From NCBI GenBank assembly GCA_018662325.1, contig JABJGM010000012.1, positions 62,001 to 126,000 on the forward strand: a stretch of 64,000 bases of DNA, in the 5' to 3' direction. Of this stretch, positions 1 to 42,718 are shown one piece after another. Position 1 is the first letter of the stretch. Each line of letters starts with the position of its first letter. The notes beneath the pieces are model-generated. The model was not told the origin of the DNA. It saw nothing but the letters and a program-made list of their open reading frames with translations, and made no database searches. The stretch comes from a bacterium. GTDB lineage: Bacteria; Patescibacteriota; Gracilibacteria; UBA1369; GCA-2718715. A program made the translations under genes and the position numbers.

Positions 1-123
1 ATCTTTGATGATAAAGTTTTAATTGTAAATTATAAAGACTCAACTGGTGTTTTAATTCAAGATTTAAACTTGGTAAAATCTTTGCAATTGTTGCATGAAT
101 TTATATGGAATAGTATTCAATAA
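1..123 (+). CDS. TrmB-family transcriptional regulator, C-terminal end (partial)
   Basis: The frame is open from the window edge to a TAA at 121-123 and gives about 40 residues. The pattern (a strand like DDKVLIV, then a GV-I--L-LVKSLQLLHEFIW helix) matches the last 40 residues of the two complete TrmB-like proteins at 35218-35970 and 57665-58420. I therefore infer it is the C-terminus of a third member. The DNA-binding domain lies outside the window. The next gene follows after 83 bp on the same strand. Confidence 0.6.
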   Translation: MFDDKVLIVNYKDSTGVLIQDLNLVKSLQLLHEFIWNSIQ

Positions 124-206
124 GTTATATTTTAATCTAGGATTTCTTACTTTGTTTGACTTATTTTTTTGTTTGTTTAGTCTGTAGATACTATTTAACA
201 ATTTGT

Positions 207-542
207 ATGAATTTTAAGGGCATAATAGACAGCGCTATTTCGACGCGAGAATCTTTTGAGAAATTTGAAGAGAAGATTTATGGGAAAAAGTGGGATGTTA
301 ACCAATTAATGCTAGGCTTATCTGTTGATGTTGGCGATTTAATAAGATTAGTTCAAGAAAAAAAGGGAACTAGACCAAAAAACACTGAAGATTTAGATGA
401 TAAAATTGCACATGAGCTTTGTGATGTTTTATGGGTTGTTTTGGTTTTAGCTAATGAACTTGATGTTGATCTTACTCATGAATTCCCTAAAAATATGATA
501 GATCTACAAGCGATAATTGAAAATAAAATTAATAATAATTAA
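207..542 (+). CDS. MazG-like nucleotide pyrophosphohydrolase
   Basis: A 111-residue helical protein. The pair DVGDLIRLVQEKKG and HELCDVLWVVLVLANELDVDL resembles the two metal-binding helices of the MazG/dUTPase-like all-alpha superfamily, which hydrolyses NTPs to NMP and PPi. The first helix has D where E is usual in the EExE-type motif, so substrate and activity are uncertain. The frame is open 17 codons further upstream (from 156), but that stretch is Cys/Tyr/Phe-rich and unlike the family, so ATG 207 is preferred. The next gene starts 1 bp after the stop, and two Nudix genes follow, suggesting a nucleotide-pool cleaning operon. Confidence 0.65.
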   Translation: MNFKGIIDSAISTRESFEKFEEKIYGKKWDVNQLMLGLSVDVGDLIRLVQEKKGTRPKNTEDLDDKIAHELCDVLWVVLVLANELDVDLTHEFPKNMIDLQAIIENKINNN

Positions 543-543
543 C

Positions 544-1083
544 ATGAGTAAACTACCTAAATTTATTGAACGAAACACTGTTTATGAATCTAAGTTTATT
601 AAAGTTCATCGAGATAAAATTAGAACTCATTCTGATAAAACATATAAGCACCATGTTTTAGAGTCTCCTTTTGACTCGGTTGTTAGTATTATAAAAAATA
701 CTAATGGTCAATTAGCTATGGTTTCATCTATTCGATATGTTCAGGGCATTGAAGATTCTTTGGAGCTACCAGCTGGTGGTATTGATCCAAATGAAGAGCC
801 AATGATTGCTGCAAAAAGAGAGTTTAGAGAAGAAACTGGGTTTGAATCTCATAATCTCACTTTTTTAGGTGATTTTTATCCAAGTAATTCTATGATGACT
901 CAAAAAATTTATGTTTTTGGTGGTGAATTAAATGAATCGATGGAAAGGCAAGAGTATGATAAAGATGAAGTGAGTGAGACTTTTTGGTATACTTTAGAAC
1001 AGATTAAAGACTTAATTCGAAATAAGAAAATAACTTGTGGAGTTACTCTGTCTGCATTAACATTATATATGTTAAATAACTAA
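544..1083 (+). CDS. Nudix hydrolase, ADP-ribose pyrophosphatase-like
   Basis: A 179-residue protein with a complete Nudix box (G-x5-E-x7-RE-F-R-EE-T-G-F, roughly residues 77-99), preceded by SLELPAGGID as in ADP-ribose/nucleoside-diphosphate-sugar pyrophosphatases. The N-terminal beta domain (TVYESKFIKVHRDKI) also fits that subgroup. Start at ATG 544, directly behind the MazG-like stop; an in-frame ATG at 517 would overlap that gene. The exact substrate cannot be read from sequence. It is the second gene of a tight three-gene set of nucleotide or nucleotide-sugar hydrolases. Confidence 0.85.
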   Translation: MSKLPKFIERNTVYESKFIKVHRDKIRTHSDKTYKHHVLESPFDSVVSIIKNTNGQLAMVSSIRYVQGIEDSLELPAGGIDPNEEPMIAAKREFREETGFESHNLTFLGDFYPSNSMMTQKIYVFGGELNESMERQEYDKDEVSETFWYTLEQIKDLIRNKKITCGVTLSALTLYMLNN

Positions 1084-1088
1084 ATAAT

Positions 1089-1529
1089 ATGGCTCAAAAA
1101 TTTAAAGTTTACTTTGCTGTTTACTTGGTTTTGAAGCGCGATGGAAAAATTTTAATGGCAAAGCGTTCCAATACAGGTTATATGGATGGAATGTATAGTT
1201 TAGTAGCGGGCCATGTAGATGGTAATGAAACTGTTTATCAAGCTATGCTGCGTGAAACCAAAGAAGAGGTTAATATTGATATCATTGCTGAAGATATGAA
1301 AGTTGTACACGTCAGTCATAGAAATTCTAAAGATACTAAACGTGAATATATTGACGTTTATTTAAAGGCTTCAAAGTTTAAAGGTGAACTTTTGAATTTA
1401 GAACCTGATAAGTGTTCTGAGTTAAAGTGGTTTAATAGTCATGAATATCCAGAAAATATTGTTCCAGAGGTTAAATCTGTTTTAGAGAATCTTTCAAAAG
1501 GTAATTTTTTTTCAACCTTAGGATTCTAG
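1089..1529 (+). CDS. Nudix hydrolase, MutT-like
   Basis: A 146-residue single-domain Nudix protein. The box runs GHVDGNE-x7-RETKEEVNI: the metal-binding RE and EE pairs are intact, but the usual Gly before the last hydrophobic residue is Asn. LVAGHVDGNE is typical of small Nudix enzymes acting on (d)NTPs. It starts 5 bp after the preceding Nudix gene and ends in TAG. It probably removes oxidised or excess nucleotides; the substrate is inferred only. Confidence 0.8.
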   Translation: MAQKFKVYFAVYLVLKRDGKILMAKRSNTGYMDGMYSLVAGHVDGNETVYQAMLRETKEEVNIDIIAEDMKVVHVSHRNSKDTKREYIDVYLKASKFKGELLNLEPDKCSELKWFNSHEYPENIVPEVKSVLENLSKGNFFSTLGF

Positions 1530-1536
1530 TAAATTT

Positions 1537-1558
1537 ATATAACAATTCATTGTTATAT
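1537..1558. promoter_or_regulatory. 22-bp perfect palindrome (putative operator)
   Basis: Arms ATATAACAAT (1537-1546) and ATTGTTATAT (1549-1558) are perfect inverted repeats separated by TC. The right arm contains the -35 box proposed for the 1354-codon gene. There is no T-run directly after the hairpin and the stem is almost pure A/T, so a terminator for the upstream Nudix gene is less likely than a repressor site. The binding protein is unknown. Confidence 0.5.
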
Positions 1559-1578
1559 TTACTCAAATATGTTATTAT
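1550..1578 (+). promoter_or_regulatory. Sigma-70-type promoter for the 1354-codon gene
   Basis: TTGTTA (1550-1555), a 17-bp spacer and TATTAT (1573-1578). Transcription would start near 1585, leaving a leader of about 16 nt before the TTG start at 1601. A second TATAAT lies at 1587-1592 but has no -35 partner. Confidence 0.5.
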
Positions 1579-1600
1579 ATATAGAATATAATTACTAATT

Positions 1601-4600
1601 TTGAATGATATTAATTCTTTTCCATCTTCGGATAATTTTGATTCATTAGTTTTTTCTTCAGACAATGAAGGTGATGCTCAATTAGAGGCTAGTTCGGGCT
1701 TGCTTTCATCTAGTGCTGTAATTCAGGGTTTTCAAAATAAGTATTATACCTTAAGGGGTGATGTTGATCAAAGTTTATATGTTGATTATTTTTCTAATAA
1801 TCAAGAATTAATAGAAAAGGTAAGAGGAGAGAATTTTCATATTGGGGAATTATCTTCAAGTGAAAGGTTAACTTATAAACGTTTGTTGGTAATATCAAAA
1901 TTAAAAATTTTAAATCGTAGTTTTCTTGATTTTGATATACCAATTAATTTATCTTATTTAAATTCCAATAGTTTTTTAGATAATCAGGAGCAATTTAAAG
2001 ATGGTTTGTTGCCATTGTTATCTTCACTAAATTTAGGAAATAATTCTAAGTTTTTTAATGTTAATTTAGATGAAAATGAATTTTTGGAATATAACATTTC
2101 TTCATTTAATCCAGAAAGAGTGCTTTTAGATTTTAATTCAAGCGATACTAGTTTTTCTGTTTTGCGTGATGGAAATGTTAGTAGTTTTGTTAAGGTTTTA
2201 AAGGTTTTTGATGATAATAACAATCAAATAGATTTAAGTGAAAAGTCAATTTATTTAAATTTTAATTATTTGTGTTCTTCAGAAAGGTTATCTTCTTTTC
2301 AAGATCCCTTAGAAAAAAATTTACAAGATATAAGTCCTTTTAAAATTGAGGAGGTTGAAGGAGTTCATAGTATTACTTCTCTTTTTCCTGTTTTACAAAT
2401 TCATGTAGAGAAATTTGGATTTCAAAAAGTTAAAGATATTATTCTCAAGTCAATACAGACAGATGATGATTTTTCTATTTTAGAATATATTCTTTTGATA
2501 AAAAAGGTCTTAGGTGATAGTTTTGCAGTTGATATCGCTAGTTTTTTAGTAAATAAATATCTGCTTAATAAGTGTTTAAATTGGAGTGCTTTAGGGAAAA
2601 TATTGGTTAATGCTGATAAATTAGTTGGTTTTGATTGTTTTAATATTGAAAATATTATAATTCAACAACTTAAATATAAGCGTGAAGATCAAGTAGATTT
2701 TTCAAATTTTTTATCCCATTTATTGATAATAAATAAATATATTCCCAATAAAATATATCTTAAAAATATAATGAGTAAGTTTTTAGTTGATTTGCGTAAT
2801 CTAGAAATTAAATCTTCAGATTTTGAATATATTTATAATTCAATTATGATTAATTACAGATCTATAAAACTTGTTTTTGGGGATGAGTATGATTCTGAAA
2901 TTATGATCTTGTATAAAAAAGCCAAGAGTTTTGATAACTTTACATTAAACACCTCTTATGAATTTGTACTAATAAATATGGGTTATAGTGAATTTAAAAG
3001 CTTGGTTTTTTATAATATGAAAGTATCTTATACGGAGATTAATTTTAATTTAATTATAAGTCTTATTGGGCTTGATGAACTAGTAGATTTATTAATTGAG
3101 TACACAGATTCTAGTTCTTATTCTTTTTCAATGAAAATATTTGATTTAAAGAATATGATACCTAATTATATATTTCATATTATTTTAGAAAAATATATTC
3201 AGAAATCTCTTGAATCTAATGATGAATCATTTTTTGAAAATTTACGTAGAATACAATTCAAAATAAATGCGAGTGCAAAGTTTTATCTTAATCATATTAA
3301 TAAATTTTTAGTTGATAATGAAAAGTTGAATATTTTATTTTCAAATAGAAAACAACTTTTTAAATTTTTATCTAAGCAAGAAGTAAAAGATATCGAAAAG
3401 CTTGCTTTTGATGAATATTTTTGTGAGGTTTTACCTTTTTATGATAAATTTAAAAATTTTAAAAAAGAGGATTTTTTAAAAGAAATTGAAAACATGATTC
3501 AGTATCAAAAGGAATTGAATTTTATAGGTGATGATTTTGTACAGCTAATAAATGAAGAGAATTTAGAAGCTATGAAGAAATTATTTAATAATAATTTTCC
3601 AGATAAATTTAATGAATTGTTTGATTTAATTTTTAATATTGATTCAAATTTTCTTGGTAGGCATTTTCAATTGGTAAATCGATATGCCCCTTTGATAGCG
3701 GAAAAATGTAGAGCGATTTTGTATACTAATTTGGAGGATGATAATCAATTAGATTTAAATCTTCGATTAATTAGATTTGATACAGAAAAAAGAATTGATC
3801 CGGATAGAATTCTTACTTTACTGATTAGGAATTTGGAAAATAATAATGTTTCATTGGTTCAAGATGTTTTACCCCTTTTATCTAAAAAATTAACCTATAA
3901 ACAATCAGAGAAGATTGCTTATAAAGCTATAGATAAACAAAAGTATAATTTAATTATTAATAATTTATTTAGTTTTCCTTCTTTTCAATTTCTTTTTGCC
4001 AATACCCCTGATCTTTGGAGACTAAATCGAGTTAAAACAATAGAGTTTTTTACATATCTAATTAAAAAGAATAATTTTAGTAAATTATTTATAGATATAA
4101 AAAAATTATTTGAATTTGATTCTATTTTAGCCTTAGAGGTAATAGAGAAAGGTTTTAAGAAAGATTTTTTGATAGATATTAAATTACTTTCAGATTTTGC
4201 TGATGAGAATTTTGTTCAAGAATATATGAGAAAATTAATTTCACGTTGTATACATTATCCGGGTGTTGTTAGATTATTATTTTCTGATTTGGAGCTTGTA
4301 AGGAAATATTTAAGTAAAGAAGAGTTAAAAATTTTTGTAGGTAATATTTATGATTCTTTTAGAGCTCATACTTATTTGTTAGATTTGTTTTTTACACAGT
4401 TTAATTTTTTTCAAGAAAATTTATCAAATAATGACTTGGTAAATATTATAAAATTGTCCTTAGATAAAAGAATTGATCTTGTTTATTTAAATATAGATGT
4501 GTTGGTACAGTTTTTTAGTGAAAATCTTAATTGTTTAGATGAAATTTTTGAGATAGATATACCTTCAGATTTATCAAATGCTGAATTAGATAATTACATT

Positions 4601-5665
4601 AAATATGAATTAGTTGAACTATCTGGTAATTTATTGCTGAGTTTTCAAGAGTATAAAATTATATTTGATAACTATTTAAATATTATTGAATTAAATGATT
4701 ATTTATTACTTGGCAAGGCTTTAGATTTAGCTTTTGAAGAACATGATTTTGAAAGTTTATTGTTTATTCTTCCAAAGTTAAATAATTTAGATGTTTTAAA
4801 TAGAATACCTAATTTTGATCCTTTAAAATTTCAATCTTTTATTGATTTTGATTTAACTGGAGTTAATTTTGTTTATAATAACAATCAAGGTTTTGAGTTT
4901 GTTAAAGATGGAATTTTTTATAGATATGATGTTGATTTTAATTTAGTTGAAACTGTAGATAACTTAGAACCTGATAGAGTGCATTTAGATCATTTGAATA
5001 TTTCTTATAGAAAGAATTTTTTACATCCGTATTCTTTTATGCAAAATGTTATACAGTCTAGATATGCCTTTGAAAGAGGTGATAAGGAATTTTTTAGAAA
5101 TAAAAGAATGAATGTAATTTTTTATCCAACTTCTGATTATAATGGTGCATTTGATTATGATTCACGTTTGCATTCAACGCAAGCCAATACCTTATACTTT
5201 GAAATATCAAGTGAAGGTGAAATGTATGATTATATTAAGGAATTAGGAGATTTTGGCATAAAGATTGATTTGATGCTGATTGGTGGACATGGTTGTCAGA
5301 AGTCTTTAAATTTTTCTAATGCTGGAGATCCAAGGTTTTCAAATTTTAAAGGATCCGACTTAGGTACCTTGTCTTTACAAGATGAGCAAGAGTTAAATGA
5401 TTTATCTAATATAGATTCTGTTTTAAATATTTTAACAGGTACAGAAATTATTTTGAATTCTTGTTCAACAGGAGCTCGATATAATGAAGACGATAATGTT
5501 GTAATGCTTATTGCTAGAACAATCGGGAGAAATGCAAGAGTAAGTGGTCCTAGTATTCCTTCAAATGGATATTTAACCTTTAGATTTGGAAGGTATACTA
5601 AGCAGTTTTATTCAAATATTGCATTTAATTATTTTATTGATGGTAGAGAGCAATTAGCAAATTAA
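1601..5665 (+). CDS. Giant protein with C-terminal caspase/CHAT-like peptidase domain
   Basis: A 1354-residue protein with a TTG start; no in-frame ATG fits better and a promoter sits just upstream. No signal peptide or membrane helix is visible, so it is probably cytoplasmic. Residues about 230-1100 are Leu/Ile/Phe/Asn-rich and look like a long array of paired helices; I could not assign a named repeat. The last 200 residues carry DLMLIGGHG with His1230 and EIILNSCSTG with Cys1288, the spacing and context of the His-Cys dyad of clan CD peptidases (caspase, CHAT, clostripain-like). The gene stands alone between a palindrome-covered promoter and a strong terminator. A helical scaffold fused to a caspase-like domain resembles known bacterial effector proteases (such as TPR-CHAT), but the trigger and target are unknown. 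Confidence 0.6.
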   Translation: MNDINSFPSSDNFDSLVFSSDNEGDAQLEASSGLLSSSAVIQGFQNKYYTLRGDVDQSLYVDYFSNNQELIEKVRGENFHIGELSSSERLTYKRLLVISKLKILNRSFLDFDIPINLSYLNSNSFLDNQEQFKDGLLPLLSSLNLGNNSKFFNVNLDENEFLEYNISSFNPERVLLDFNSSDTSFSVLRDGNVSSFVKVLKVFDDNNNQIDLSEKSIYLNFNYLCSSERLSSFQDPLEKNLQDISPFKIEEVEGVHSITSLFPVLQIHVEKFGFQKVKDIILKSIQTDDDFSILEYILLIKKVLGDSFAVDIASFLVNKYLLNKCLNWSALGKILVNADKLVGFDCFNIENIIIQQLKYKREDQVDFSNFLSHLLIINKYIPNKIYLKNIMSKFLVDLRNLEIKSSDFEYIYNSIMINYRSIKLVFGDEYDSEIMILYKKAKSFDNFTLNTSYEFVLINMGYSEFKSLVFYNMKVSYTEINFNLIISLIGLDELVDLLIEYTDSSSYSFSMKIFDLKNMIPNYIFHIILEKYIQKSLESNDESFFENLRRIQFKINASAKFYLNHINKFLVDNEKLNILFSNRKQLFKFLSKQEVKDIEKLAFDEYFCEVLPFYDKFKNFKKEDFLKEIENMIQYQKELNFIGDDFVQLINEENLEAMKKLFNNNFPDKFNELFDLIFNIDSNFLGRHFQLVNRYAPLIAEKCRAILYTNLEDDNQLDLNLRLIRFDTEKRIDPDRILTLLIRNLENNNVSLVQDVLPLLSKKLTYKQSEKIAYKAIDKQKYNLIINNLFSFPSFQFLFANTPDLWRLNRVKTIEFFTYLIKKNNFSKLFIDIKKLFEFDSILALEVIEKGFKKDFLIDIKLLSDFADENFVQEYMRKLISRCIHYPGVVRLLFSDLELVRKYLSKEELKIFVGNIYDSFRAHTYLLDLFFTQFNFFQENLSNNDLVNIIKLSLDKRIDLVYLNIDVLVQFFSENLNCLDEIFEIDIPSDLSNAELDNYIKYELVELSGNLLLSFQEYKIIFDNYLNIIELNDYLLLGKALDLAFEEHDFESLLFILPKLNNLDVLNRIPNFDPLKFQSFIDFDLTGVNFVYNNNQGFEFVKDGIFYRYDVDFNLVETVDNLEPDRVHLDHLNISYRKNFLHPYSFMQNVIQSRYAFERGDKEFFRNKRMNVIFYPTSDYNGAFDYDSRLHSTQANTLYFEISSEGEMYDYIKELGDFGIKIDLMLIGGHGCQKSLNFSNAGDPRFSNFKGSDLGTLSLQDEQELNDLSNIDSVLNILTGTEIILNSCSTGARYNEDDNVVMLIARTIGRNARVSGPSIPSNGYLTFRFGRYTKQFYSNIAFNYFIDGREQLAN

Positions 5666-5695
5666 AAGCCCCTTAATTCCAAGGGGCTTTTTTGT
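5664..5695. terminator. Bidirectional intrinsic terminator after the giant gene
   Basis: Stem AAAAGCCCCTT (5664-5674) / AAGGGGCTTTT (5681-5691) with a 6-nt loop and T-run on the + strand, A-run on the other side. It begins right at the stop codon of the 1354-codon gene. Confidence 0.9.
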
Positions 5696-5721
5696 TGTTT
5701 TAAAGGGGGAGTTGTAAGTGA

Positions 5722-5763
5722 TTATTGATCAATTACTTCGCCTTCGTCGTCTTTTGAATCTTT
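5722..5763 (-). pseudogene. Orphan 3' fragment of dnaK (13 codons plus stop)
   Basis: These 42 nt are identical to the 3' end of the intact dnaK at 6705-6746 and read in the same direction. The similarity stops abruptly at 5763/5764. There is no upstream reading frame, so this is a non-functional duplicate left by the event that created the direct repeats. Confidence 0.9.
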
Positions 5764-5777
5764 CGTGAGTAAAACTT

Positions 5778-5806
5778 TTGACATTTTTTATGTAAGATGG
5801 TATAGT
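5778..5806 (+). promoter_or_regulatory. Sigma-70-type promoter for the 267-codon gene
   Basis: TTGACA (5778-5783), 17-bp spacer, TATAGT (5801-5806), 26 bp before the ATG at 5832. It lies just inside copy A of the direct repeat, so the bracketed segment carries its own promoter. Confidence 0.75.
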
Positions 5807-5831
5807 TGGTTAATATTTAAAAATAAAAAAT

Positions 5832-6635
5832 ATGAATATAAATATAAATGAACATAATTCAGCAATAGAGAGGTCTGTTAGTCCTTTTAATGCTGCAATT
5901 TTTGAAATACAAAATTTAGAATTAAATTCACCTGAAAATGGTAATATTCTTGTGAAAAATGTAGATGGTACATTATGTATTTCTTGTCCAAAACATGAGT
6001 TAACTGTAAGGATAAATTGTGATGGAAATAATACTGTGTATTTCTATGATTCAATTTCTGGCGATAGAAGTAGCCATAATTATTTTGATTTGAAAGATCT
6101 TAATACGTCATCAGGTAGTTTAAGGCATTGGAGAAGATGGAATCTTCTTAATCCAAAGTTTTATTATGATAAAGCTAATGAATTGATAAGTTTAGTAGAG
6201 GCTTCTTTGAGTAACCATTCAGGCTTAGAAGATTTTGACGATATTACGATTAATGAAATTCTTAGTGATAGTAATAGTGTTGCTGAACTATTTCAGCTGA
6301 AATCTGTTGAACATTCTGAGTATGGAGAAATTAGATTTCGCTACTTTGAGAATACTGGTCAATTGAGTTTGTCCATTCCTTCGCTAGGTGTGATAATTTA
6401 TCTTCAAGAAGGTTCTGATTCTAATCAGCTTATTTGGTTTGATGAAAGTTTCTCTGGTCACCCCAAGGATCATATTAGGCCTAGGAATTATATTCATTTA
6501 GACACTATGAAAGAATATTATACTAGTTCATATATTTCACACTGGAATGGAGGTTGGAAAATTCAAGATCCTAAGTATTATGTAGATTTAATAACTGCAA
6601 TGCCTGGTTTTCTAAAAGATTTATTAGGTAATTAA
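5832..6635 (+). CDS. Unknown protein made of two related domains
   Basis: A 267-residue soluble-looking protein with no signal peptide. I do not recognise the family. It contains an internal duplication: the N-half segment (about residues 45-125, with LCISCP, NYFDL, RHWRRW, NPKFYYD) lines up with the C-half (about 165-262, with LSLSIP, NYIHL, SHWNGGW, DPKYYVD). Each half looks like a beta-rich stretch followed by HW-x4-W-x4-P-KYY and a helix. It has its own promoter and terminator and is enclosed by 103-bp direct repeats derived from dnaK, which suggests later insertion. No mobility gene accompanies it. Confidence 0.75.
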   Translation: MNININEHNSAIERSVSPFNAAIFEIQNLELNSPENGNILVKNVDGTLCISCPKHELTVRINCDGNNTVYFYDSISGDRSSHNYFDLKDLNTSSGSLRHWRRWNLLNPKFYYDKANELISLVEASLSNHSGLEDFDDITINEILSDSNSVAELFQLKSVEHSEYGEIRFRYFENTGQLSLSIPSLGVIIYLQEGSDSNQLIWFDESFSGHPKDHIRPRNYIHLDTMKEYYTSSYISHWNGGWKIQDPKYYVDLITAMPGFLKDLLGN

Positions 6636-6643
6636 TAATTAAA

Positions 6644-6746
6644 ATTAAAAGCCCCTTGATTCAAAGGGGCTTTTTTTTTGATTTGAAGGGGGAGTTGTAA
6701 GTGATTATTGATCAATTACTTCGCCTTCGTCGTCTTTTGAATCTTT
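6644..6746. repeat. 103-bp direct repeat, copy B (native dnaK end)
   Basis: The partner of 5661-5763. This copy is continuous with the intact dnaK gene and is therefore probably the original. The identical 61-bp core is 6686-6746. Confidence 0.95.
6647..6679. terminator. Bidirectional intrinsic terminator between convergent genes
   Basis: Stem AAAAGCCCCTT (6647-6657) / AAGGGGCTTTT (6664-6674), then a nine-T run. It serves the 267-codon gene on + and dnaK on -. It is the repeat-B counterpart of the terminator at 5664. Confidence 0.9.
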
Positions 6747-8624
6747 TTTATCTGTACTTTCTTCGTTTGATTCAGTTTGGTTTTGATCGTCTACGTTTAC
6801 GCCTTCTTGTGGTTGAGAGTACATAGCTTGACCAATTTTCTGAACTTCTTGATTAAGTTCTTCAATTGCAGTTTTAAGTGCGTCTACATCTTTGCTTTCG
6901 GCTTTAAGTAATTCTTTAATTACTTCAACTTTTTGGGTAACTGGTTTTGAAATATCTTCAGTGATTTTTTCTTTATGCTCATCTAAAGTTTTTTCAGTTT
7001 GGTATACTAGGCTTTCAGCTTGATTTACAACTTCAATTGATTCTTTTTTCTTTTTGTCTTCTTCGGCGAATTTTTCAGCTTCTTCTTGCATTTTTTGGAT
7101 TTCATCATCTGTAAGTCCGCTTGAACCTGTAATTGTAATTTTTTGTTCTTTGTTGGTTGCTTTATCCACGGCTTTAACATTTAAAATACCGTTAGCATCC
7201 ACATCAAAAGTTACTTCAACTTGAGGTACTCCTCGTGGTGCTGGAGCGATTCCATCAAGTATAAATCTACCAAGAGATTTGTTGTCTGAAGCCATAGATC
7301 TTTCACCCTGTAGAACATGAATTTCTACTGATGGTTGATTGTCGCCTGCAGTTGAGAAAACTTGTGATTTAGAAGTTGGAATAGTTGAATTCTTTTCAAT
7401 TAATGGAGTCGATACACCACCTAAAGTTTCAATCCCAAGAGTTAATGGAATTACATCTAGTAAAAGTACGTCTTTTACGTCACCTTGTAATACACCACCT
7501 TGAATGGCAGCTCCAAGAGCTACTACTTCATCAGGGTTGATTCCTTGGTGTGGTTCTTTTCCAAAGAAGTTTTTAACTTTTTCTCTTACAAGTGGCATTC
7601 TTGTCATACCACCTACTAAAATAACTTCATCGATATCTGATTCAAAAATTTTAGAATCTTTAAGAGCTGTTCTACATGGTTCTAAGGATCTATCAATAAT
7701 TCCTGAAACTAGTTCTTCAAGTTTTGATCTTTTAAGACTTAAGTTTAAGTGTTTAGCACCATCAGCGTCAGCAGTAATAAATGGTAGGTTTATTTCAGTT
7801 TCTGCAGCTGAAGAAAGCTCTATTTTAGCTTTTTCGGCAGCTTCTTTAAGTCTTTGAAGAGCAGCTTTATCTTTTGAAAGATCAATTCCTTCTTGTTTTC
7901 TGAATTCTTCAAGTAAGTATTCTAAAATTGCATTATCAAAATCATCACCACCTAAAGTTGTATTACCATTTGTAGCTAATACTTCGATTTGTTTTTCTCC
8001 ATCAATATCTGAGATTTCTAAAATAGATACATCAAAAGTACCTCCACCTAGATCGTAAACAGCAACTTTTTTATCACCACCTTTTTTGTCTATCCCATAG
8101 GCTAGGGAAGCGGCAGTTGGTTCGTTAATAATTCTTAAAACTTCAAGTCCTGCAATTTTACCTGCATCTTTAGTAGCTTGTCTTTGAGAATCATTAAAGT
8201 AAGCTGGAACAGTAATTACAGCTTGTGTTACTTCATGTCCTAAGAAACTTTCAGCATCGGCTTTAAGTTTTTGAAGAACCATTGCTGAAATTTCAGCTGG
8301 TCTATGTTGTTTTCCGTTAAGTTCGATTTCGGCTTCACCTTTTGCACCTTTAACAACCTTGTAAGGTAGGTTTTCAATGATTCCTTTGATTTCATCAAAA
8401 GAGTGACCGATTAATCTTTTTGCTGAAAAAATAGTGTTTTGAGCGTTTGTAACAGCTTGTCTTTTGGCTGCAACCCCCACTAATCTTTCATCATTTTTAT
8501 AGGCAACAATACTTGGTGTAGTACGTAATCCTTCTTGGGAAGAAATCACTACAGCTTCTCCACCTTGCATTACAGCTACACATGAGTTTGTGGTACCTAA
8601 ATCGATTCCAATTACTTTACTCAT
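6705..8624 (-). CDS. dnaK: Chaperone protein DnaK (Hsp70)
   Basis: A full-length 639-residue Hsp70. N-terminal ATPase signatures include [30 protein letters not shown] and LGGGTFDVS; a substrate-binding domain and an acidic, disordered C-terminal tail follow. It works with GrpE (9541-10044) and a J-protein in protein folding; no dnaJ is present in the window. Expression is probably controlled by HrcA through the CIRCE element just upstream. It is monocistronic, ending at a bidirectional terminator. Its 3' end is duplicated at 5722-5763. Confidence 0.99.
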
Positions 8625-8649
8625 AAAATAAAATTAATTATATATTAAA

Positions 8650-8676
8650 TTAGCACTCTGAATTATAGAGTGCTGA
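8650..8676. promoter_or_regulatory. CIRCE operator (HrcA binding site)
   Basis: TTAGCACTC (8650-8658), a 9-bp spacer and GAGTGCTGA (8668-8676), matching the classical CIRCE inverted repeat with one change in the last arm. It lies 25 bp upstream of dnaK. HrcA is encoded at 10031-10762, so a standard HrcA-CIRCE circuit is expected. No second CIRCE was seen near hrcA/grpE or hsp20. Confidence 0.95.
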
Positions 8677-8690
8677 TTATGAAAATGCAA
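8662..8690 (-). promoter_or_regulatory. dnaK promoter embedded in CIRCE
   Basis: On the minus strand, TTGCAT (8690-8685), a 17-bp spacer and TATAAT (8667-8662). The -10 box is the CIRCE spacer itself, so HrcA binding would directly cover the polymerase site. Confidence 0.85.
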
Positions 8691-8702
8691 GGTTTTTTTA
8701 GT

Positions 8703-9431
8703 TTATGAAAAAAGTCTTTTAATTCTACTAAATATATTTTCTTTTCTTGTTTCTATTATTTGTGTTTTTTTATTTTCTGCATTTGATACTTCGACTTGAT
8801 CAATTTGAACTCTTCCTGCCTCAAAAGATACTTTTAAGATGTCAGATGAAACTTGTATCAATTCCCCTTTGTTTTCTGCTGTAGTTGGATTGTTCGCTTC
8901 TAAGTACTCCTTAAGTAAGTTGATGTTTTGAAGTTGGTAAGTTGATATGTTTGCAATTAATTCTTTAGTCTTTTCAAGTGATGCCTCTGCTTTTTTTGAA
9001 CGTATTGGTGTATGAATAATTCTTATAGTTACAACTTTGTCGTCAAGCATAGTTTCACCGCTTTTTGTCATGAACATTCCAAGAGATTCGCTTACTTCTT
9101 TAGTTTTTTCTTTAATTGTTAGTTTTGCATTTTGATCATCTAATAAAATCTCAAAATTAGCATTTGTAATATTTACTATTACTTGATTCTGTGTGTCTTT
9201 AAGTAAATTAGCTTCTTCTAGTATTGACTTGATTTTTTCAGGGTTTTTAATTTGATCTTCATTTAACTCTTCTAGTAAATTAGAAATTGCTTGAAGAGTA
9301 TCATTTACATTTATTAAATTTGGGTTTTGTGAAATTATTCTAATATCTGTTTTAAGATTATTTAAGAATATTTCTTTATTTTTTTGAATTAATATTCTTC
9401 TTGGAGCTTCATCATAATTTTGGTTTTGCAT
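8703..9431 (-). CDS. Unknown protein between dnaK and grpE
   Basis: A 242-residue, charged, probably soluble protein with mixed helix/strand character and a basic C-terminal tail (FSRIKRLFS). No signal peptide or recognised domain. The frame is open 17 codons further upstream, but a consensus promoter occupies that stretch (9454-9482), so the ATG at 9431 is preferred. It is transcribed separately from the grpE-hrcA unit, from which a terminator divides it. Position in the chaperone region suggests, but does not prove, a stress-related role. Confidence 0.7.
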   Translation of the reverse strand: MQNQNYDEAPRRILIQKNKEIFLNNLKTDIRIISQNPNLINVNDTLQAISNLLEELNEDQIKNPEKIKSILEEANLLKDTQNQVIVNITNANFEILLDDQNAKLTIKEKTKEVSESLGMFMTKSGETMLDDKVVTIRIIHTPIRSKKAEASLEKTKELIANISTYQLQNINLLKEYLEANNPTTAENKGELIQVSSDILKVSFEAGRVQIDQVEVSNAENKKTQIIETRKENIFSRIKRLFS

Positions 9432-9453
9432 ATTTAAAACTTTAAATCTAATT

Positions 9454-9482
9454 ATTATACCATGGATTTTTAAAATTGACAA
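9454..9482 (-). promoter_or_regulatory. Promoter of the unknown gene at 8703-9431
   Basis: On the minus strand, TTGTCA (9482-9477), a 17-bp spacer and TATAAT (9459-9454), 22 bp before the chosen ATG. Confidence 0.75.
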
Positions 9483-9490
9483 TTACATGT

Positions 9491-9520
9491 GTTTTTAAAA
9501 AACCTCACTTGGGAGGTTTT
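9491..9520 (-). terminator. Terminator after grpE
   Basis: The inverted repeat AAAACCTC (9499-9506) / GAGGTTTT (9513-9520) has a 6-nt loop and a run of six T on the minus strand. It separates the hrcA-grpE unit from the downstream gene's promoter. Confidence 0.75.
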
Positions 9521-9540
9521 AATTGTTTTTTAGTTTGTTT

Positions 9541-10044
9541 TTAATTTCCATTACCAACCACAACTTTAGAAGGTTTTAAAACTCTATCTTCTAGCATGTA
9601 ACCTTGTTCTATTACCTCGATGATTTTATCTTGTTCTCCTGGAATTGAAGAAATGATTTCGTGGTGGTGAGGGTTTAGGGTTTCGTGTGAGATTGGAGTT
9701 AATCCGAAATTTTCAGTTATTTTAACTAGTTGTTTTTGAATTTGATTAATTCCTTTAATGAAGTTGTGTTCTTTTAATTCTTCTGGGGTTTGTTTTAGAG
9801 CTAAATTTAGATTGTCTAAAATAGGCAAAAAGCTGTCTAAAACTTGAACTCTCGCAAATTTTGCATATTCTTGTTTTTCTTTAGCCATTTGGGTTTTGAA
9901 GTTTTGCAAATCAGCCATTGCTCTTTTGGCAATGTTAGTCATTTCGTTTAATTGTTCTTCCAGAGATTTTTCTTGAGTAGAATCATCCTTTTGATTTGTT
10001 TCTTCCTGTGTGTTTGGTTCTAGGTTTGAATTAGTTTCTGTCAT
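9541..10044 (-). CDS. grpE: Nucleotide exchange factor GrpE
   Basis: A 167-residue GrpE. It has an acidic disordered N-terminus, a long coiled coil (about 30-90, with DLQNFKTQMAKEKQEYAKFA and DSFLPILDNLNLAL), and the C-terminal beta domain ending GYMLEDRVLKPSKVVVGNG, the family's most conserved stretch. It releases ADP from DnaK. The start overlaps the 3' end of hrcA by 14 bp, so the two are co-transcribed and probably translationally coupled. Confidence 0.97.
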   Translation of the reverse strand: MTETNSNLEPNTQEETNQKDDSTQEKSLEEQLNEMTNIAKRAMADLQNFKTQMAKEKQEYAKFARVQVLDSFLPILDNLNLALKQTPEELKEHNFIKGINQIQKQLVKITENFGLTPISHETLNPHHHEIISSIPGEQDKIIEVIEQGYMLEDRVLKPSKVVVGNGN

Positions 10045-10762
10045 TTAGGTTAAAGTTAAGTAATTCACATATTTGCTCTAAAATTATACTATTTAGTCCA
10101 TAGTTCATTCTAGTTGGGCCAAGTATACCAATAAAGCCTGTGTAGTTCAATGCCTTGTATCTTTTTACAATTATTGAGCATGATTGAATTTCTTCAAGCA
10201 AATTTTCTTTTCCAATTAAAATTTCAGTCTTATCAAAAGGCGTTGCTAGTTTTTCTAGAAACCTTAAAAATTTATCATCTTTTTCAAAAGTTTCCATTAC
10301 TTGTGAAGCTTGCATAGGGTCCTTTAGAAATTCTGGACTTTTAAGTATTTTCGACACTCCTAAATAGAAAGTTCTTGAGCCTGGAAGAGTAGCAAATGCG
10401 ATATTTGGAGTGTTTGCAGCTAGAATTGTGATAGCATCGTAAATTTCTCTTTTAATTTTTTTGGATTGAAATTGTTTTTTAATTTCCGCTAGAACTTTTG
10501 CATGTTGATTTTTAACTTTTTGAATATCTACCAAATCATCTACAAACATTCGATAAGCTTTGTCGGTTGGGATTCTTCCGGCACTTGTATGAGGTTGTAT
10601 TAAAAAGCCTTCTTTTTCAAGGTTTGCCATGTCTAAACGGATTGTAGCAGGGGATACTTCGAAATTGTAAGCCAGCATTAAACTTTTTGAACCAATTGGT
10701 TCAGCTGATTTTAAATATTCTTGGATTACTGCTTTTAATATGTTTTTTTTACGTTCTTGCAT
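10031..10762 (-). CDS. hrcA: Heat-inducible transcription repressor HrcA
   Basis: A 243-residue protein with the typical N-terminal winged helix (EYLKSAEPIGSKSLM, SPATIRLDMANLEKEGFL, HTSAGRIPTDKAYRMFVDDL) and a GAF-like C-terminal part ending GILGPTRMNYG. HrcA is usually about 340 residues, so the central inserted region is reduced here. It should bind the CIRCE at 8650-8676. It is the first gene of the hrcA-grpE operon; unlike many bacteria, its own promoter shows no CIRCE. Confidence 0.95.
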   Translation of the reverse strand: MQERKKNILKAVIQEYLKSAEPIGSKSLMLAYNFEVSPATIRLDMANLEKEGFLIQPHTSAGRIPTDKAYRMFVDDLVDIQKVKNQHAKVLAEIKKQFQSKKIKREIYDAITILAANTPNIAFATLPGSRTFYLGVSKILKSPEFLKDPMQASQVMETFEKDDKFLRFLEKLATPFDKTEILIGKENLLEEIQSCSIIVKRYKALNYTGFIGILGPTRMNYGLNSIILEQICELLNFNLNDRN

Positions 10763-10830
10763 TTTTTTTCTTATAATTGTGAATTTTTGATTTTATTTCA
10801 AGTTTTTTTGCTTGCACTTAATTCTTTTGT

Positions 10831-10859
10831 TTGATAAGTTTGGTGTAGTTTTTTAAATA
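10831..10859 (+). promoter_or_regulatory. Promoter of the 42-codon gene
   Basis: TTGATA (10831-10836), 17-bp spacer, TAAATA (10854-10859). The ATG at 10866 begins 7 bp after the -10 box, where transcription would start, so the mRNA may be leaderless. Confidence 0.5.
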
Positions 10860-10865
10860 TACAGC

Positions 10866-10994
10866 ATGAGTAATAGATCATCTTCTAAGCAACATGGCCT
10901 AGTTGGTAACAAGAGACCAATTGCAAAGAAAAGAAAAAAGAGAAATAAATTTTTAGCTAGAATGAGAAGACTTCTAAAATTAAGCCAAGAGTAA
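10866..10994 (+). CDS. Small, very basic protein (42 residues)
   Basis: The frame ATG 10866 to TAA 10992-10994 encodes a 42-residue protein with a core KRPIAKKRKKRNKF and a second basic stretch RMRRLLKL. About 40% of residues are Lys or Arg. It has a promoter directly upstream and a terminator that overlaps its stop codon, which argues that it is a real gene. Size and charge suggest a nucleic-acid or ribosome-associated protein. It is not bL34, which is at 29505-29633, nor any other small ribosomal protein I recognise. It is divergent from hrcA. Confidence 0.6.
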   Translation: MSNRSSSKQHGLVGNKRPIAKKRKKRNKFLARMRRLLKLSQE

Positions 10995-11008
10995 TCTGGC
11001 TTTTTTTA
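10982..11008 (+). terminator. Terminator overlapping the end of the 42-codon gene
   Basis: AAGCCA (10982-10987) / TGGCTT (10997-11002) with a 9-nt loop containing the TAA stop, followed by a T-run. Confidence 0.75.
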
Positions 11009-11010
11009 TT

Positions 11011-12021
11011 TTACAATTTACTTGCTACTAAGTTGCATAGGTCAACTAATCTACAACAGTATCCGTATTCGTTGTCATACCAGCTTAGAATTTGAATCAT
11101 ATTTCCGTTTAAAACTTCTATAAATTCCGCATCAATTGAGCTTGAGAATGGGCTTCCAATATAGTCTGATGAAACCAAAGGTTCATGGTTAACTTCTAAA
11201 ATCCCTTTTAATTCATTTAGACTGGCTTTTTCAAAAGCGGCTAAAATTTCTTCTTTTGTTATATCTTTGCTTACGATAATTTTACTATCAACAATTGAAA
11301 CTGTAGGAGTTGGAACTCTCATTCCACATGCCGAAACTTTGGATGCTAAATGTGGCATTACTTTTTTAATTGCTTTTGCAGCCCCGGTTGAGGTTGGAAT
11401 GATATTTGAAGCGGCAGCCCTTGCTCTTCTTGAATCTTTTTTATGAGTTGAATCTTGAATATTTTGACTATTTGTATATGAGTGAATCGTTGTCATCATA
11501 CAGTTTTCAATTCCAAAATTTTCATCAATTACTTTTAAAAGTGGTGCAAAACAATTTGTTGTACACGATGCATTTGAAATAATATTATGATTTTGTGGGT
11601 CGTAATCTTTATCATTGATTCCCATTACTACTGTTAAATCTTCATCTTTACCTGGGGCTGAAATGATAACTTTTTTACATCCTGCTTTAATGTGTTTACC
11701 GCAACCCTCTTGGTCTTTAAAGATTCCGGTACATTCAAGGACGATATCTACCTTTAGTTCCTTCCATGGTAGTAGTTCTGGATCTCTTTCATGGCAAAAT
11801 CTTATTTTATGACTATCTATAATTAAATAGTCTCCATCTAATTTTGCTGGGTAGTGTGCTTTTTTATAATTACTATCATAATTATAAAGATGTGTAAGCT
11901 GAACTGGATCTCCAGGATTGTTGATTGCTACCAAGTTAAATTTAGGATTTTCTAAGAACGCTCTTAGTGTAGTTCTACCTATTCTTCCAAATCCATTAAT
12001 TGCAACATTGATTTTTGACAT
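11011..12021 (-). CDS. gap: Glyceraldehyde-3-phosphate dehydrogenase
   Basis: A 336-residue class I GAPDH. The Rossmann motif INGFGRIGR is at the N-terminus, catalytic Cys153 in SNASCTTNC and His180 in TTIHSYT. It oxidises glyceraldehyde-3-phosphate with phosphate to 1,3-bisphosphoglycerate, reversibly. At the position where NAD-specific enzymes have Asp (usually I/V-N-D) this protein has Asn35 (AINNPGD), so NADP use is possible. The minus-strand promoter has an extended -10 (TGATATAAT, about 12044-12052). With fbp nearby it may serve gluconeogenesis as well as glycolysis. Confidence 0.97.
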   Translation of the reverse strand: MSKINVAINGFGRIGRTTLRAFLENPKFNLVAINNPGDPVQLTHLYNYDSNYKKAHYPAKLDGDYLIIDSHKIRFCHERDPELLPWKELKVDIVLECTGIFKDQEGCGKHIKAGCKKVIISAPGKDEDLTVVMGINDKDYDPQNHNIISNASCTTNCFAPLLKVIDENFGIENCMMTTIHSYTNSQNIQDSTHKKDSRRARAAASNIIPTSTGAAKAIKKVMPHLASKVSACGMRVPTPTVSIVDSKIIVSKDITKEEILAAFEKASLNELKGILEVNHEPLVSSDYIGSPFSSSIDAEFIEVLNGNMIQILSWYDNEYGYCCRLVDLCNLVASKL

Positions 12022-12071
12022 GTTTTTTTGTTACATTCTATTTATTATATCATACTTAATTTAAAAATTAA

Positions 12072-12677
12072 ATGAAATTAGTAAAATTTGATGAAGTTTT
12101 AGACTTCGATTCTGTACTTAAAGAATGTTTTGATTTGCTTGAACTTGAAAAGGTGATTTGTATTCCAACTGATACTTGTTATGGTCTTTCCTGTGTATTT
12201 GATTCTGGGAAGGCAAAAGAGCAGATTGCAAACTTTAAAAGAACTTCCAAAGACAAACCTTTAACTATGATAGTTTCTAGCGTGCAGATGCTTTATGAGT
12301 ATTGTGAAGTTTCATCATTAGCAGCGCAGTTAATTGAAGAGTATTGGCCTGGACCATTGACTTTAATTTTACCATCTAAATTTTCAGATGGATGTATAGG
12401 AGTAAGACTTCCAGATCATATTTTTTTACAGAGTTTAGTTGCTAAGTTAAATAAACCAATTGTTTCTACTTCGGCAAATTTAACAGGACAAAAAGAGACT
12501 TATTCAGTAGAGGAATTAAATCAACAATTTGAAGGTAAACTTCAAGATTTAGATTTTATTTTAGATAATGGGATTTTGGATTTCAATCGTCCTTCTACAG
12601 TTTTAAAAATTGTTGGAGAAAAATTAGAATTAATTCGAGAAGGTGATGCTTGGAGCTCGATTAGCCAAAGGTTTTAA
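12072..12677 (+). CDS. tsaC: Threonylcarbamoyl-AMP synthase (Sua5/YrdC/TsaC family)
   Basis: A 201-residue single-domain YrdC protein with PTDTCYGLSC, KRTSKDKPL, WPGPLTLIL, the STSAN motif and RPSTVLK near the end. It makes threonylcarbamoyl-AMP from Thr, bicarbonate and ATP for the t6A37 modification of ANN-decoding tRNAs. It lacks the extra C-terminal Sua5 domain. It is divergent from gap across a 50-bp AT-rich gap. Confidence 0.93.
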   Translation: MKLVKFDEVLDFDSVLKECFDLLELEKVICIPTDTCYGLSCVFDSGKAKEQIANFKRTSKDKPLTMIVSSVQMLYEYCEVSSLAAQLIEEYWPGPLTLILPSKFSDGCIGVRLPDHIFLQSLVAKLNKPIVSTSANLTGQKETYSVEELNQQFEGKLQDLDFILDNGILDFNRPSTVLKIVGEKLELIREGDAWSSISQRF

Positions 12678-12710
12678 GTGGCTTAGATAAGTCATTAAAC
12701 TTCTATCTCC

Positions 12711-12739
12711 TTGACTTTTTGTTAAATATAATATATATA
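12711..12739 (+). promoter_or_regulatory. Promoter for rsmH
   Basis: TTGACT (12711-12716), 17-bp spacer, TATATA (12734-12739), 27 bp before the rsmH ATG. A TATAAT at 12727-12732 is too close to this -35 to pair with it. Confidence 0.5.
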
Positions 12740-12766
12740 AGATGTAGTAAAAAATTAATATATTTT

Positions 12767-13702
12767 ATGGAAGATTTTAAGTTTGAGCATGTTTCTGTGC
12801 TTTTAGATGAGGTTTGTGATTTTTTAGATCCAAAGGAAACAGACATTATTGTTGATGGAACTTTAGGTTTAGGTGGTCATACTAAAGAACTTTTAAAGAG
12901 AACTGACGGGAAAGCAAGAGCTTATACTTTTGATTTGGATTCTAGAAATTTAAAAATTGCTAGAGATACATTACAGCGTTTTGAGGGTAGAGTTAGTTAT
13001 ATTAATGATAGTTTTTCTACTTTTGATCATTATTATAAAGTAATGAAAATGGATGGTGTTGATAAAGTTGTTTTAGATCTTGGTCTTTCATCTCCTCATT
13101 TAGATATAGCTGAGCATGGATTTAGTTTTAAAAGAAGAGGGCCTCTGGATATGCGTTATTCTAGGAAACAAAAAATAACTGCGGCAACTTTACTTAATAA
13201 GTTACCAGCTGACCAATTGACAATGATTTTAAAATCTTTTGGTGAATTATCAAATGCTAAATTAATAGCACGTAAAATTGTTGAGGAAAGAGCTGTGGCT
13301 CCCTTTAAATACACAGATGAATTTGCTTCTAGAATTGAGATTTGTTTTCATCCAAAAGATAGAATCAAAGGATTAACATGTATTTTTCAAGCCATAAGGA
13401 TTGCAGTTAATGATGAACTACGGACCTTATCAAAAGGTTTGGAAAGTCTTTATAATCATTTATCTTCCAATGGGCGTATAGCTGTGATATCATACCACTC
13501 ACTAGAGGATAGAATTGTAAAGAATTTTTTTAGGAAGCTTGAGAAACCACTTGAGACTGATCCAGAGAAAAGTTTAAGATCAATATATGCTGATCCTTTA
13601 GTAGAAATGATTACTAAAAAACCTGTTAAACCAGGTGAAAAAGAAGTTGAGGTAAATCCAAGATCAAGAAGTGCAAAATTAAGAGTAATCAGAAAAATTT
13701 AA
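12767..13702 (+). CDS. rsmH: 16S rRNA (cytosine1402-N4)-methyltransferase
   Basis: A 311-residue protein beginning MEDFKFEHVSVLLDEV, the typical RsmH/MraW start; an upstream in-frame extension from 12719 is rejected because it covers the promoter. It shows DGTLGLGGHT (SAM site), DLGLSSPHLD, GFSFKRRGPLDMRYS and the C-terminal SYHSLEDRIVKNFF. As in many bacteria it heads a short division gene set: an FtsL-like gene follows after 8 bp. Confidence 0.97.
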   Translation: MEDFKFEHVSVLLDEVCDFLDPKETDIIVDGTLGLGGHTKELLKRTDGKARAYTFDLDSRNLKIARDTLQRFEGRVSYINDSFSTFDHYYKVMKMDGVDKVVLDLGLSSPHLDIAEHGFSFKRRGPLDMRYSRKQKITAATLLNKLPADQLTMILKSFGELSNAKLIARKIVEERAVAPFKYTDEFASRIEICFHPKDRIKGLTCIFQAIRIAVNDELRTLSKGLESLYNHLSSNGRIAVISYHSLEDRIVKNFFRKLEKPLETDPEKSLRSIYADPLVEMITKKPVKPGEKEVEVNPRSRSAKLRVIRKI

Positions 13703-13710
13703 TTTCTAAA

Positions 13711-13986
13711 ATGTTTCATAAATTCTTTTTATTGGGACTTGTATCAATTACCTTCTTGTTATTCTCTTACATTCAAAATTTTCATGAATCAATTAATTTT
13801 GGTTCAAGTATAACTAACCTTTCAGTTAATTCTGAATTAGTTTACTCTGAAAAAGAGAAAATAAATTTAGATATTTCACGCTCACAGAGTTTGGATTATA
13901 TTATGGAATCTGGAAGAGTACAAAATATGATTCCTGCTTCAGATGTAAAATTTATATCAGTAACAAACCGTTTAGCTTTAAAATAA
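13711..13986 (+). CDS. FtsL-like small membrane protein
   Basis: A 91-residue bitopic protein: a short N-terminus, one membrane helix (about residues 4-21), and an extracytoplasmic segment with a predicted coiled-coil stretch. The sequence itself is not distinctive. The identification as an FtsL-type divisome protein rests mainly on its position right after rsmH, where ftsL usually lies, and on size and topology. It abuts the fbp start directly. Confidence 0.55.
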   Translation: MFHKFFLLGLVSITFLLFSYIQNFHESINFGSSITNLSVNSELVYSEKEKINLDISRSQSLDYIMESGRVQNMIPASDVKFISVTNRLALK

Positions 13987-14883
13987 ATGCTTTCAAATAT
14001 CAATTTGCCATTTGAACTTCAAAGATTACTTGAAAATTTAATTGCTGTTCCTAATAACTTAAGAGCGGCAACTTCTAAGTATCTAAGTGAATCTTCTAAT
14101 GTAAATGTTCATGGCGAACAAAGTATGCAATTAGATCTTTTTGCTAATGATTTAGTTAAGGAGTCTTTAGTTGGTCTTGATTTTATACACTCAATTGCTT
14201 CGGAAGAAGAAGATGAGTTAATTTATATGAATACAAATGGTAAATATTTGCTATGTTTCGATCCTTTAGATGGATCTTCTTTAATTAATACAAATCAAGC
14301 TGTTGGGATTGTTTTTGCTCTTTATGATAAAGATAAGGTTTTTAATGTACCTTTGAAAGAATCTTTGATTATGTCTTTTTATTTTCATATTGGAAAAAAT
14401 AATTCTTTGTTAATTAATTATAAAGACAATATTACTCATTTAGAATATTTAGATGATGGGTTTCATGTTAAAGATGTTAATACTATTAACGAAGATGCAA
14501 ATAATATTGCTCCAGGTAATTTGAAATTATTATCTACTAATACTAGATACAAAGACTATATATTGTCCCGTTTAGAAAGTGGATTGAAGTTAAGATACTT
14601 TGCTTGTTTGATTTCCGATATTCATTTCCTTTTATCAAAAGCAGGAGGAATTTTTATTTATTTAAATGATGATAAGCATGTTAATGGTAAGTTACGTTTA
14701 TTGTATGAAGTAGCACCTGTATCTCATATTATTTGTGCTTTAAATGCAAAAAGTATAAATCATACTGGTCAGAATATTTTAGATTTAATTCCTAGTAATA
14801 TACATCAAAATTCATCATTAGTTGCTGGATCTTCATCCGAGGTTGACTTATTTACCGAATTGGTGTTAAATATTAAAGAATAA
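13987..14883 (+). CDS. fbp: Fructose-1,6-bisphosphatase, class I
   Basis: A 298-residue protein with the FBPase/inositol-phosphatase metal motifs: Glu cluster SEEE (about 72-75), FDPLDGSS (91-98) and GKLRLLYEVAPVSHI near the C-terminus. It removes the 1-phosphate of fructose-1,6-bisphosphate, the committed step of gluconeogenesis. It is somewhat shorter than the usual 330 residues. It follows the FtsL-like gene with no gap, so it may share the rsmH transcript. Confidence in the class is high; cofactor regulation cannot be read. Confidence 0.85.
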   Translation: MLSNINLPFELQRLLENLIAVPNNLRAATSKYLSESSNVNVHGEQSMQLDLFANDLVKESLVGLDFIHSIASEEEDELIYMNTNGKYLLCFDPLDGSSLINTNQAVGIVFALYDKDKVFNVPLKESLIMSFYFHIGKNNSLLINYKDNITHLEYLDDGFHVKDVNTINEDANNIAPGNLKLLSTNTRYKDYILSRLESGLKLRYFACLISDIHFLLSKAGGIFIYLNDDKHVNGKLRLLYEVAPVSHIICALNAKSINHTGQNILDLIPSNIHQNSSLVAGSSSEVDLFTELVLNIKE

Positions 14884-14892
14884 TTTTAGTTT

Positions 14893-15444: not shown

Positions 15445-15465
15445 TTATATTTATCGTATATATAT

Positions 15466-41669: not shown

Positions 41670-41671
41670 AT

Positions 41672-42217: not shown

Positions 42218-42235
42218 TTTTTTATTTTTTAAAAA

Positions 42236-42703: not shown

Positions 42704-42718
42704 ATTTTTATTTTTAGA

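What the first reader, a model, noticed from the sequence alone, without database searches (positions are those of the whole stretch)
1601..5665. 1354-residue helical-scaffold protein with a C-terminal caspase/CHAT-like His-Cys domain
Seen: GGHG with His1230 and LNSCSTG with Cys1288 in a strand-turn context typical of clan CD peptidases, preceded by about 1000 residues of Leu/Ile/Asn-rich helical sequence with no export signal. Known: bacterial fusions of helical repeats to CHAT or caspase-like domains act as switched proteases in immunity and cell-death systems. Inference: this may be a self-contained, switchable protease of a CPR bacterium. It is a stand-alone gene without CRISPR, STAND or gasdermin neighbours.
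Basis: partly seen in the sequence, partly recalled or inferred. Interest (0 to 1): 0.8.

Follow-up and report, generated by a model that had tools for sequence, protein, structure and literature searches.

The report
Helical-scaffold caspase-like protease of Peregrinibacteria
A very small, uncultured bacterium carries a large stand-alone protein whose tail is a caspase-type cutting enzyme attached to a long coil of helices, and it turns out to be one of an unnamed family of such enzymes scattered through this whole bacterial class.

Summary
ORF 1601-5665 encodes 1354 residues (TTG start) with His1230 and Cys1288 as stated. The C-terminal domain belongs to an unnamed family found in 32 of 353 genomes of the class (Peregrinibacteria/Gracilibacteria). 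In 26 aligned members the only invariant columns are this His and Cys. AlphaFold2 places them after strands 3 and 4, as in clan CD peptidases. Best-matched structures are caspases (via a relative) and the T6SS cysteine protease Tce1; profiles touch CHAT, GPI8/C13, C25 and DUF4347, but no Pfam, NCBIfam or PADLOC family claims P0001. A modelled relative has an all-helical array before the domain. No neighbour gene is conserved. P0001 also has a ~220-residue N-terminal domain known only from its own GTDB family, where it is joined to three different His-Cys clades and to unrelated C-termini. Most likely it is a self-contained cysteine protease gated by its helical scaffold, comparable in layout (not membership) to separase or TPR-CHAT/Csx29. 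The interchangeable N-domain leaves a modular effector system open. Activity, gating, substrate and biological role are inferred. New variant of a known kind.

The parts
1601..5665 (+). whole gene, 1354 aa, TTG start, no Shine-Dalgarno site seen
1676..2329 (+). N-terminal domain (residues 26-243), found only in this GTDB family and joined there to different C-terminal parts
   Evidence: profile A8, iE 2.3e-65 (P0001 is a row of A8); pairwise P0001-P0002 E=4e-12; distribution
2330..4924 (+). long region (residues 244-1108) taken to be a helical scaffold
   Evidence: sequence character; unit 273-303 matches the 35-38 residue repeat of paralogue P0002; helical array predicted in a relative's model; P0001's own scaffold was not modelled
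2417..2509 (+). repeat-like unit, residues 273-303
   Evidence: iE 0.0036
4925..5662 (+). C-terminal clan CD-like cysteine peptidase domain (conserved from residue 1109; profile match 1158-1352)
5288..5290 (+). codon of His1230, predicted catalytic, invariant in 26 of 26
5462..5464 (+). codon of Cys1288, predicted nucleophile, invariant in 26 of 26
5664..5691 (+). intrinsic terminator directly after the stop codon (11-bp stem, T-rich tail)

Best explanation
P0001 is a large, self-contained cysteine endopeptidase of clan CD fold, predicted to act inside the cell. Residues 1109-1354 form the catalytic domain, in which His1230 activates Cys1288 for peptide-bond cleavage. Residues 244-1108 form a helical-repeat scaffold that most likely holds the protease inactive and relieves it when the scaffold, or the N-terminal domain (26-243), binds a ligand or partner: the same general logic as separase and TPR-CHAT/Csx29, without a conserved operon partner. 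Shown: domain homology, invariant dyad, fold order in the model, lack of a Sec-type signal by hydropathy, lack of conserved neighbours, and a helical array in a modelled relative. Inferred: catalytic activity, gating by the scaffold, the trigger and the substrates. Confidence is about 0.9 for 'clan CD-fold cysteine peptidase domain' and about 0.5 for the gated intracellular protease as a whole.
For: Family: 32 of 353 genomes of the class match the domain profile at E<=1e-3; His and Cys are the only invariant columns in 26 aligned members, and Thr526, His532 and Cys581 (L141 numbering) the only invariant ones in the 22-member full-length alignment. Fold: the model of P0001 1120-1354 has core pLDDT about 80-91 (block means), with b1-a-b2-a-b3-[His]-hairpin-...-b4-[Cys]-a-b5; the relative L141 is modelled with pLDDT about 90-95 through most of the catalytic core and with helices only before it. 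Foldseek: Tce1 (9qpe, prob 1.00), CED-3 (0.93 and 0.97), GSU0716 (0.66) for P0001; caspase-4, -11 and -3 (prob 1.00), then caspase-6, -1 and -8, for L141; no hit reaches E 0.001 in either. Profile against PDB: CHAT protein 8tl0 (E 0.0085) and GPI8 9ub7 (E 0.015), with His and Cys aligned. His on loop L3 and Cys on loop L4 is the clan CD layout described in PMC4357240. Domain at or near the C-terminus in the relatives read, no shared neighbours; no clear hydrophobic N-terminus in the relatives of the class; own terminator.
Against: No curated family reaches its cutoff for P0001. Foldseek E-values are only about 2e-3 to 4e-3. The catalytic domain of P0001 is divergent and its mean pLDDT is 62. 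Nothing shows proteolysis, autoinhibition or a trigger. P0001's own scaffold was not modelled. Patchy distribution and an N-domain shared with proteins of unrelated C-termini are odd for a housekeeping regulator.
Confidence: 0.5

Rival explanations
1. Modular secreted or injected effector: the N-terminal domain is a loading or targeting module, and the C-terminal protease acts on another cell (host or competitor of an episymbiotic CPR bacterium).
For: In GTDB family f1 the same ~220-residue N-domain heads proteins with at least three His-Cys C-terminal clades (P0001, P0003, P0002) in this genome and quite different C-termini in G003. P0001's protease domain is closest to that of P0008 (G123) and P0003's to that of L134 (G067), both in other GTDB families and both without the N-domain. 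Proline-rich linkers follow the N-domain in several G003 proteins. Best Foldseek hit is the T6SS cysteine protease Tce1 (PMC13323088). Patchy, sometimes multi-copy distribution.
Against: No secretion signal found, no adjacent secretion genes, no immunity gene; the N-domain is absent from the class-wide relatives; no direct evidence of export. Internal recruitment of domains would also produce shuffled architectures.
Confidence: 0.27
2. Defence or programmed-cell-death protease: the scaffold senses phage or stress and the caspase-like domain cuts a cellular target, killing or arresting the cell.
For: Architecture resembles TPR-CHAT/Csx29; one relative matches PADLOC 'caspase' (E 4.4e-5) and two match NCBIfam caspase_w_EACC1 (best E 0.0035); patchy distribution is typical of defence genes.
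Against: P0001, P0002 and P0003 have no PADLOC hit. Neighbours are housekeeping genes and not conserved. No CRISPR-like array in window 1-16000. Gasdermins were not searched for. No copies found in viral contigs or phage records.
Confidence: 0.15
3. Non-peptidase use of the fold (pseudo-enzyme or binding domain).
For: The P0001 and P0008 branches are long; P0004 of G003 ends near the start of this domain (by eye).
Against: His and Cys are the only invariant columns across 26 strongly diverged members.
Confidence: 0.05

Closest known systems
Separase (family C50)
   Same: Large protein: N-terminal regulatory part, C-terminal clan CD protease (PMC4626109, PMC5921967 abstracts).
   Different: No sequence match; bacterial; no cohesin or securin counterpart looked for; extra N-terminal domain.
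TPR-CHAT / Csx29 of type III-E CRISPR (Craspase)
   Same: Helical repeats plus C-terminal caspase-like domain (PMC9935389); best profile hit in the PDB is a CHAT protein (8tl0).
   Different: No Pfam CHAT match in any of 26 members; no CRISPR neighbour; scaffold sequence unrelated as far as tested.
Caspases/metacaspases (C14) and prokaryotic orthocaspases
   Same: Fold: caspase-4/-11/-3 are top Foldseek hits for relative L141; CED-3 for P0001.
   Different: No Pfam C14 match; protease domain is C-terminal on a long scaffold; S1 pocket not tested.
Legumain/GPI8 (C13), DUF4347, gingipain (C25)
   Same: Sub-threshold Pfam hits of relatives: C13 E 4e-4, C25 E 7e-5, DUF4347 E 2.6e-5 (24.5 bits versus cutoff 24.6, in P0008, closest to P0001).
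   Different: None reaches its cutoff; P0001 itself hits none.
Tce1 of Pseudomonas aeruginosa (T6SS; likened by its authors to the C80-type toxin protease domain)
   Same: Best Foldseek hit (9qpe, prob 1.00), similar His-Cys spacing (54 versus 58 residues; PMC13323088).
   Different: 310-aa cargo of Hcp3; no scaffold; no sequence homology shown.

Membership tests
Clan CD cysteine peptidases | Invariant His and Cys dyad | tested here: met
   26 of 26; 22 of 22 in the full-length set
Clan CD cysteine peptidases | Alternating a/b fold, His on the loop after strand 3, Cys on the loop after strand 4 | tested here: met
   predicted models; layout from PMC4357240. His-Cys distance not measurable here
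Clan CD cysteine peptidases | Peptidase activity | not testable with these tools
   needs bench work
CHAT (Pfam) | Match to the Pfam CHAT model | tested here: not met
   no CHAT row for P0001 or for any of 26 members at E<=1
Caspase C14 (Pfam) | Match to the Pfam C14 model | tested here: not met
   fold similarity only
Peptidase C13 | Pfam gathering score | tested here: not met
   best E 4e-4 among relatives; P0003 14.8-15.4 bits versus 22.8
DUF4347 | Pfam gathering score | tested here: not met
   P0008 domain 24.5 versus 24.6 bits; P0001 none
Separase C50 | Helical N-terminal part plus C-terminal clan CD domain | tested here: inconclusive
   layout agrees in relative L141; no sequence match; P0001 scaffold not modelled
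TPR-CHAT/Csx29 | CRISPR type III-E neighbour (Cas7-11) | tested here: not met
   neighbours; no array in 1-16000; rest of the genome not searched
Polymorphic toxin systems | Constant N-terminal module with exchanged C-terminal domains | tested here: met
   within one GTDB family
Polymorphic toxin systems | Known trafficking module and adjacent immunity gene | tested here: not met
   N-domain has no convincing Pfam hit; the downstream 267-aa gene is not found in the family's other genomes or near relatives

The most novel reading that the evidence does not exclude
In one family of Peregrinibacteria a previously undescribed N-terminal module without any Sec signal is combined with several different C-terminal enzymes (at least three His-Cys clades), making a polymorphic effector system that an episymbiotic CPR bacterium uses on other cells, with the class-wide scaffold proteases as its source.
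Probability: 0.22. Interest if true: 0.8.

Novelty: new variant of a known kind. Interest (0 to 1): 0.55.

Why it matters
It defines an unnamed, class-wide family of scaffold-bearing caspase-like proteases in ultra-small bacteria whose molecular dealings with hosts are almost unknown. It gives simple single-gene tests (dyad mutants, scaffold removal) of whether helical-repeat gating of clan CD proteases works without a CRISPR or other partner, and it points to an N-terminal module that may mark the proteins these cells use on others.

Tried and rejected
P0001 in viral contigs and genome contigs: no relative. C-terminal profile A12 in viral contigs and the L150 domain in phage records: none. 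P0001 C-term alone in 99 relatives: only weak hits; P0003's C-term opened the family. The L004 hit is UvrC, rejected. The 5'-nucleotidase PDB hits of P0001 (E about 0.25) and the helical-part hit of A11 (COP9/endolysin chimera, E 0.02) were taken as chance. First MAFFT alignments of two or three C-termini misaligned the Cys and were dropped. An idea that G003's P0007 holds a lytic transglycosylase domain rests on a motif seen by eye; Pfam and PDB searches gave nothing. Homology of the P0002-type His-Cys domain with the P0001 type: hhalign prob 9.6%, undecided.

Full report
What is there. ORF 1601-5665 (+) encodes 1354 residues from a TTG codon; the frame is open only three codons further upstream and its first ATG is at 2771, so an early non-ATG start is needed if the N-terminal domain, which begins at residue 26, belongs to the protein. 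The motif pair is not seen in 20,000 shuffles. A strong terminator follows the stop codon. The lineage is Candidatus Peregrinibacteria: the window's DnaK is 84% identical to that of isolate bin120o, whose genome is evidently the held G003 (identical hits).

The catalytic domain. P0001 alone matches no Pfam, NCBIfam or PADLOC family and no PDB chain convincingly. Its own-genome paralogue P0003 (878 aa) has GAHG/FTSCYSG; that domain found a 1235-aa protein in G067 (E 1.4e-22) and two weaker ones. A profile from these and P0001 matched 32 of 353 genomes of the class, and a 26-row profile matched only one genome outside the class in a phylum sample of 380. In the 26-row alignment the only invariant columns are His1230 and Cys1288 of P0001. 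The loci left out of that alignment were duplicates or frames broken by in-frame stops or matched only in part, so they do not count as homologues lacking a residue. The closest relative of P0001's domain is P0008 of G123 (another GTDB family), E 3e-16 over 1109-1322, joined to it with support 99/95.

Fold. AlphaFold2 on P0001 1120-1354 with the 26 rows gives mean pLDDT 62, with 80-91 (block means) in the core; His sits just after strand 3 and Cys just after strand 4, as described for clan CD (PMC4357240). Foldseek gives Tce1, GSU0716 and CED-3 among its best rows, mixed with Rossmann folds, none below E 0.001. The relative L141 gives a much better model of the domain (block means about 90-95 through most of the core) and top hits to caspases with prob 1.00. 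Profile against PDB sequences: CHAT 8tl0 E 0.0085 and GPI8 9ub7 E 0.015, both aligning His and Cys. The best sub-threshold Pfam hits among relatives are to C13, C25 and DUF4347 (that DUF4347 belongs to the same clan is from my own knowledge), next to chance-level ones. I take the clan CD fold as well supported and the exact family as undecided.

The scaffold. In L141, residues 53-445 are predicted as helices only, part of them with low confidence. P0002 has six 35-38-residue repeats, and P0001 has one similar unit at 273-303. P0001's own residues 244-1108 were not modelled; calling them a helical repeat scaffold rests on sequence character and these relatives.

The N-terminal domain. A ~220-residue domain (26-243) is shared with P0002 and P0003 in this genome and with six proteins in G003; in a class sample of 288 genomes only the own genome matched. 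It is absent from P0008, L134 and the other class-wide relatives. It is joined to the P0001-type, P0003-type and P0002-type His-Cys domains, the last of which is a separate family found in 17 of 386 genomes (E<=0.01), with HRGHS invariant and the Cys conserved in the nine relatives read. This is module exchange; what the module does is unknown, and it has no convincing Pfam match.

Context. Neighbours are MazG-like and NUDIX genes upstream, an orphan 267-aa gene and dnaK downstream. Around 30 His-Cys genes no neighbour recurs beyond generic surface proteins and TrmB-type regulators. The serS-dnaK interval holds different genes in G003. No CRISPR-like array in window 1-16000; the rest of the genome was not searched for CRISPR, and gasdermins were not searched for.

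Judgement. Most likely a self-contained, scaffold-gated intracellular cysteine protease; role unknown. The effector reading (about 0.27) is kept open by the N-domain exchange and the Tce1-like fold, the defence reading (about 0.15) by architecture. Activity, gating, trigger and substrate are all inference. Papers naming Peregrinibacteria and caspases together: none in the held library.

Noticed in passing
window 5659-5763 and 6642-6746: The 3' end of dnaK with its terminator is present twice (105 bp, 95%); the orphan 267-aa gene 5832-6635 lies between, preceded by an 11-of-12 promoter-like match at 5778-5806, and has no relative in the four genomes of the GTDB family.
   Followed up: partly
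L005:5708-8737 (P0002) and G026, G033, G086, G109, G158, G014, G027, G010, G082: A second class-wide C-terminal His-Cys family (VHRGHS...SCGG), 17 of 386 genomes; homology to the P0001 type undecided.
   Followed up: partly
L006, L027, L032, L127 (G003 = bin120o): Six N-domain proteins without the His-Cys domain, several with proline-rich linkers; P0006 has a hydrophobic stretch near 579-640, P0007 an ESQMDS...SKGMMQI motif resembling lytic transglycosylases (by eye, not confirmed by searches).
   Followed up: partly
L006:8146-10251 (P0004): N-domain protein that ends shortly after a stretch resembling the start of P0001's catalytic domain (TFFTKSQDYAGAF); looks truncated, by eye.
   Followed up: no
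L026:1-1692: Gene upstream of P0003 with GNC...GHAWIE...DPT, transglutaminase-like by eye.
   Followed up: no
L136 protein 33-117, L167 protein 30-114, L148 protein 56-95: A shared N-terminal motif (..DDKITETEWKEIFDSLPKELL..) in three otherwise different His-Cys proteins; the third match is weak, E 0.019.
   Followed up: partly
window 41133-45308: Run of short membrane proteins resembling VirB2/TrbC-type pilins, two of them very similar neighbours, next to an FtsK-like gene; by eye only.
   Followed up: no
L160 (G017), L151, L154, L159: Copies of the His-Cys domain with in-frame TAG or TGA; the TGA ones may be recoded genomes, L160 may be broken.
   Followed up: no
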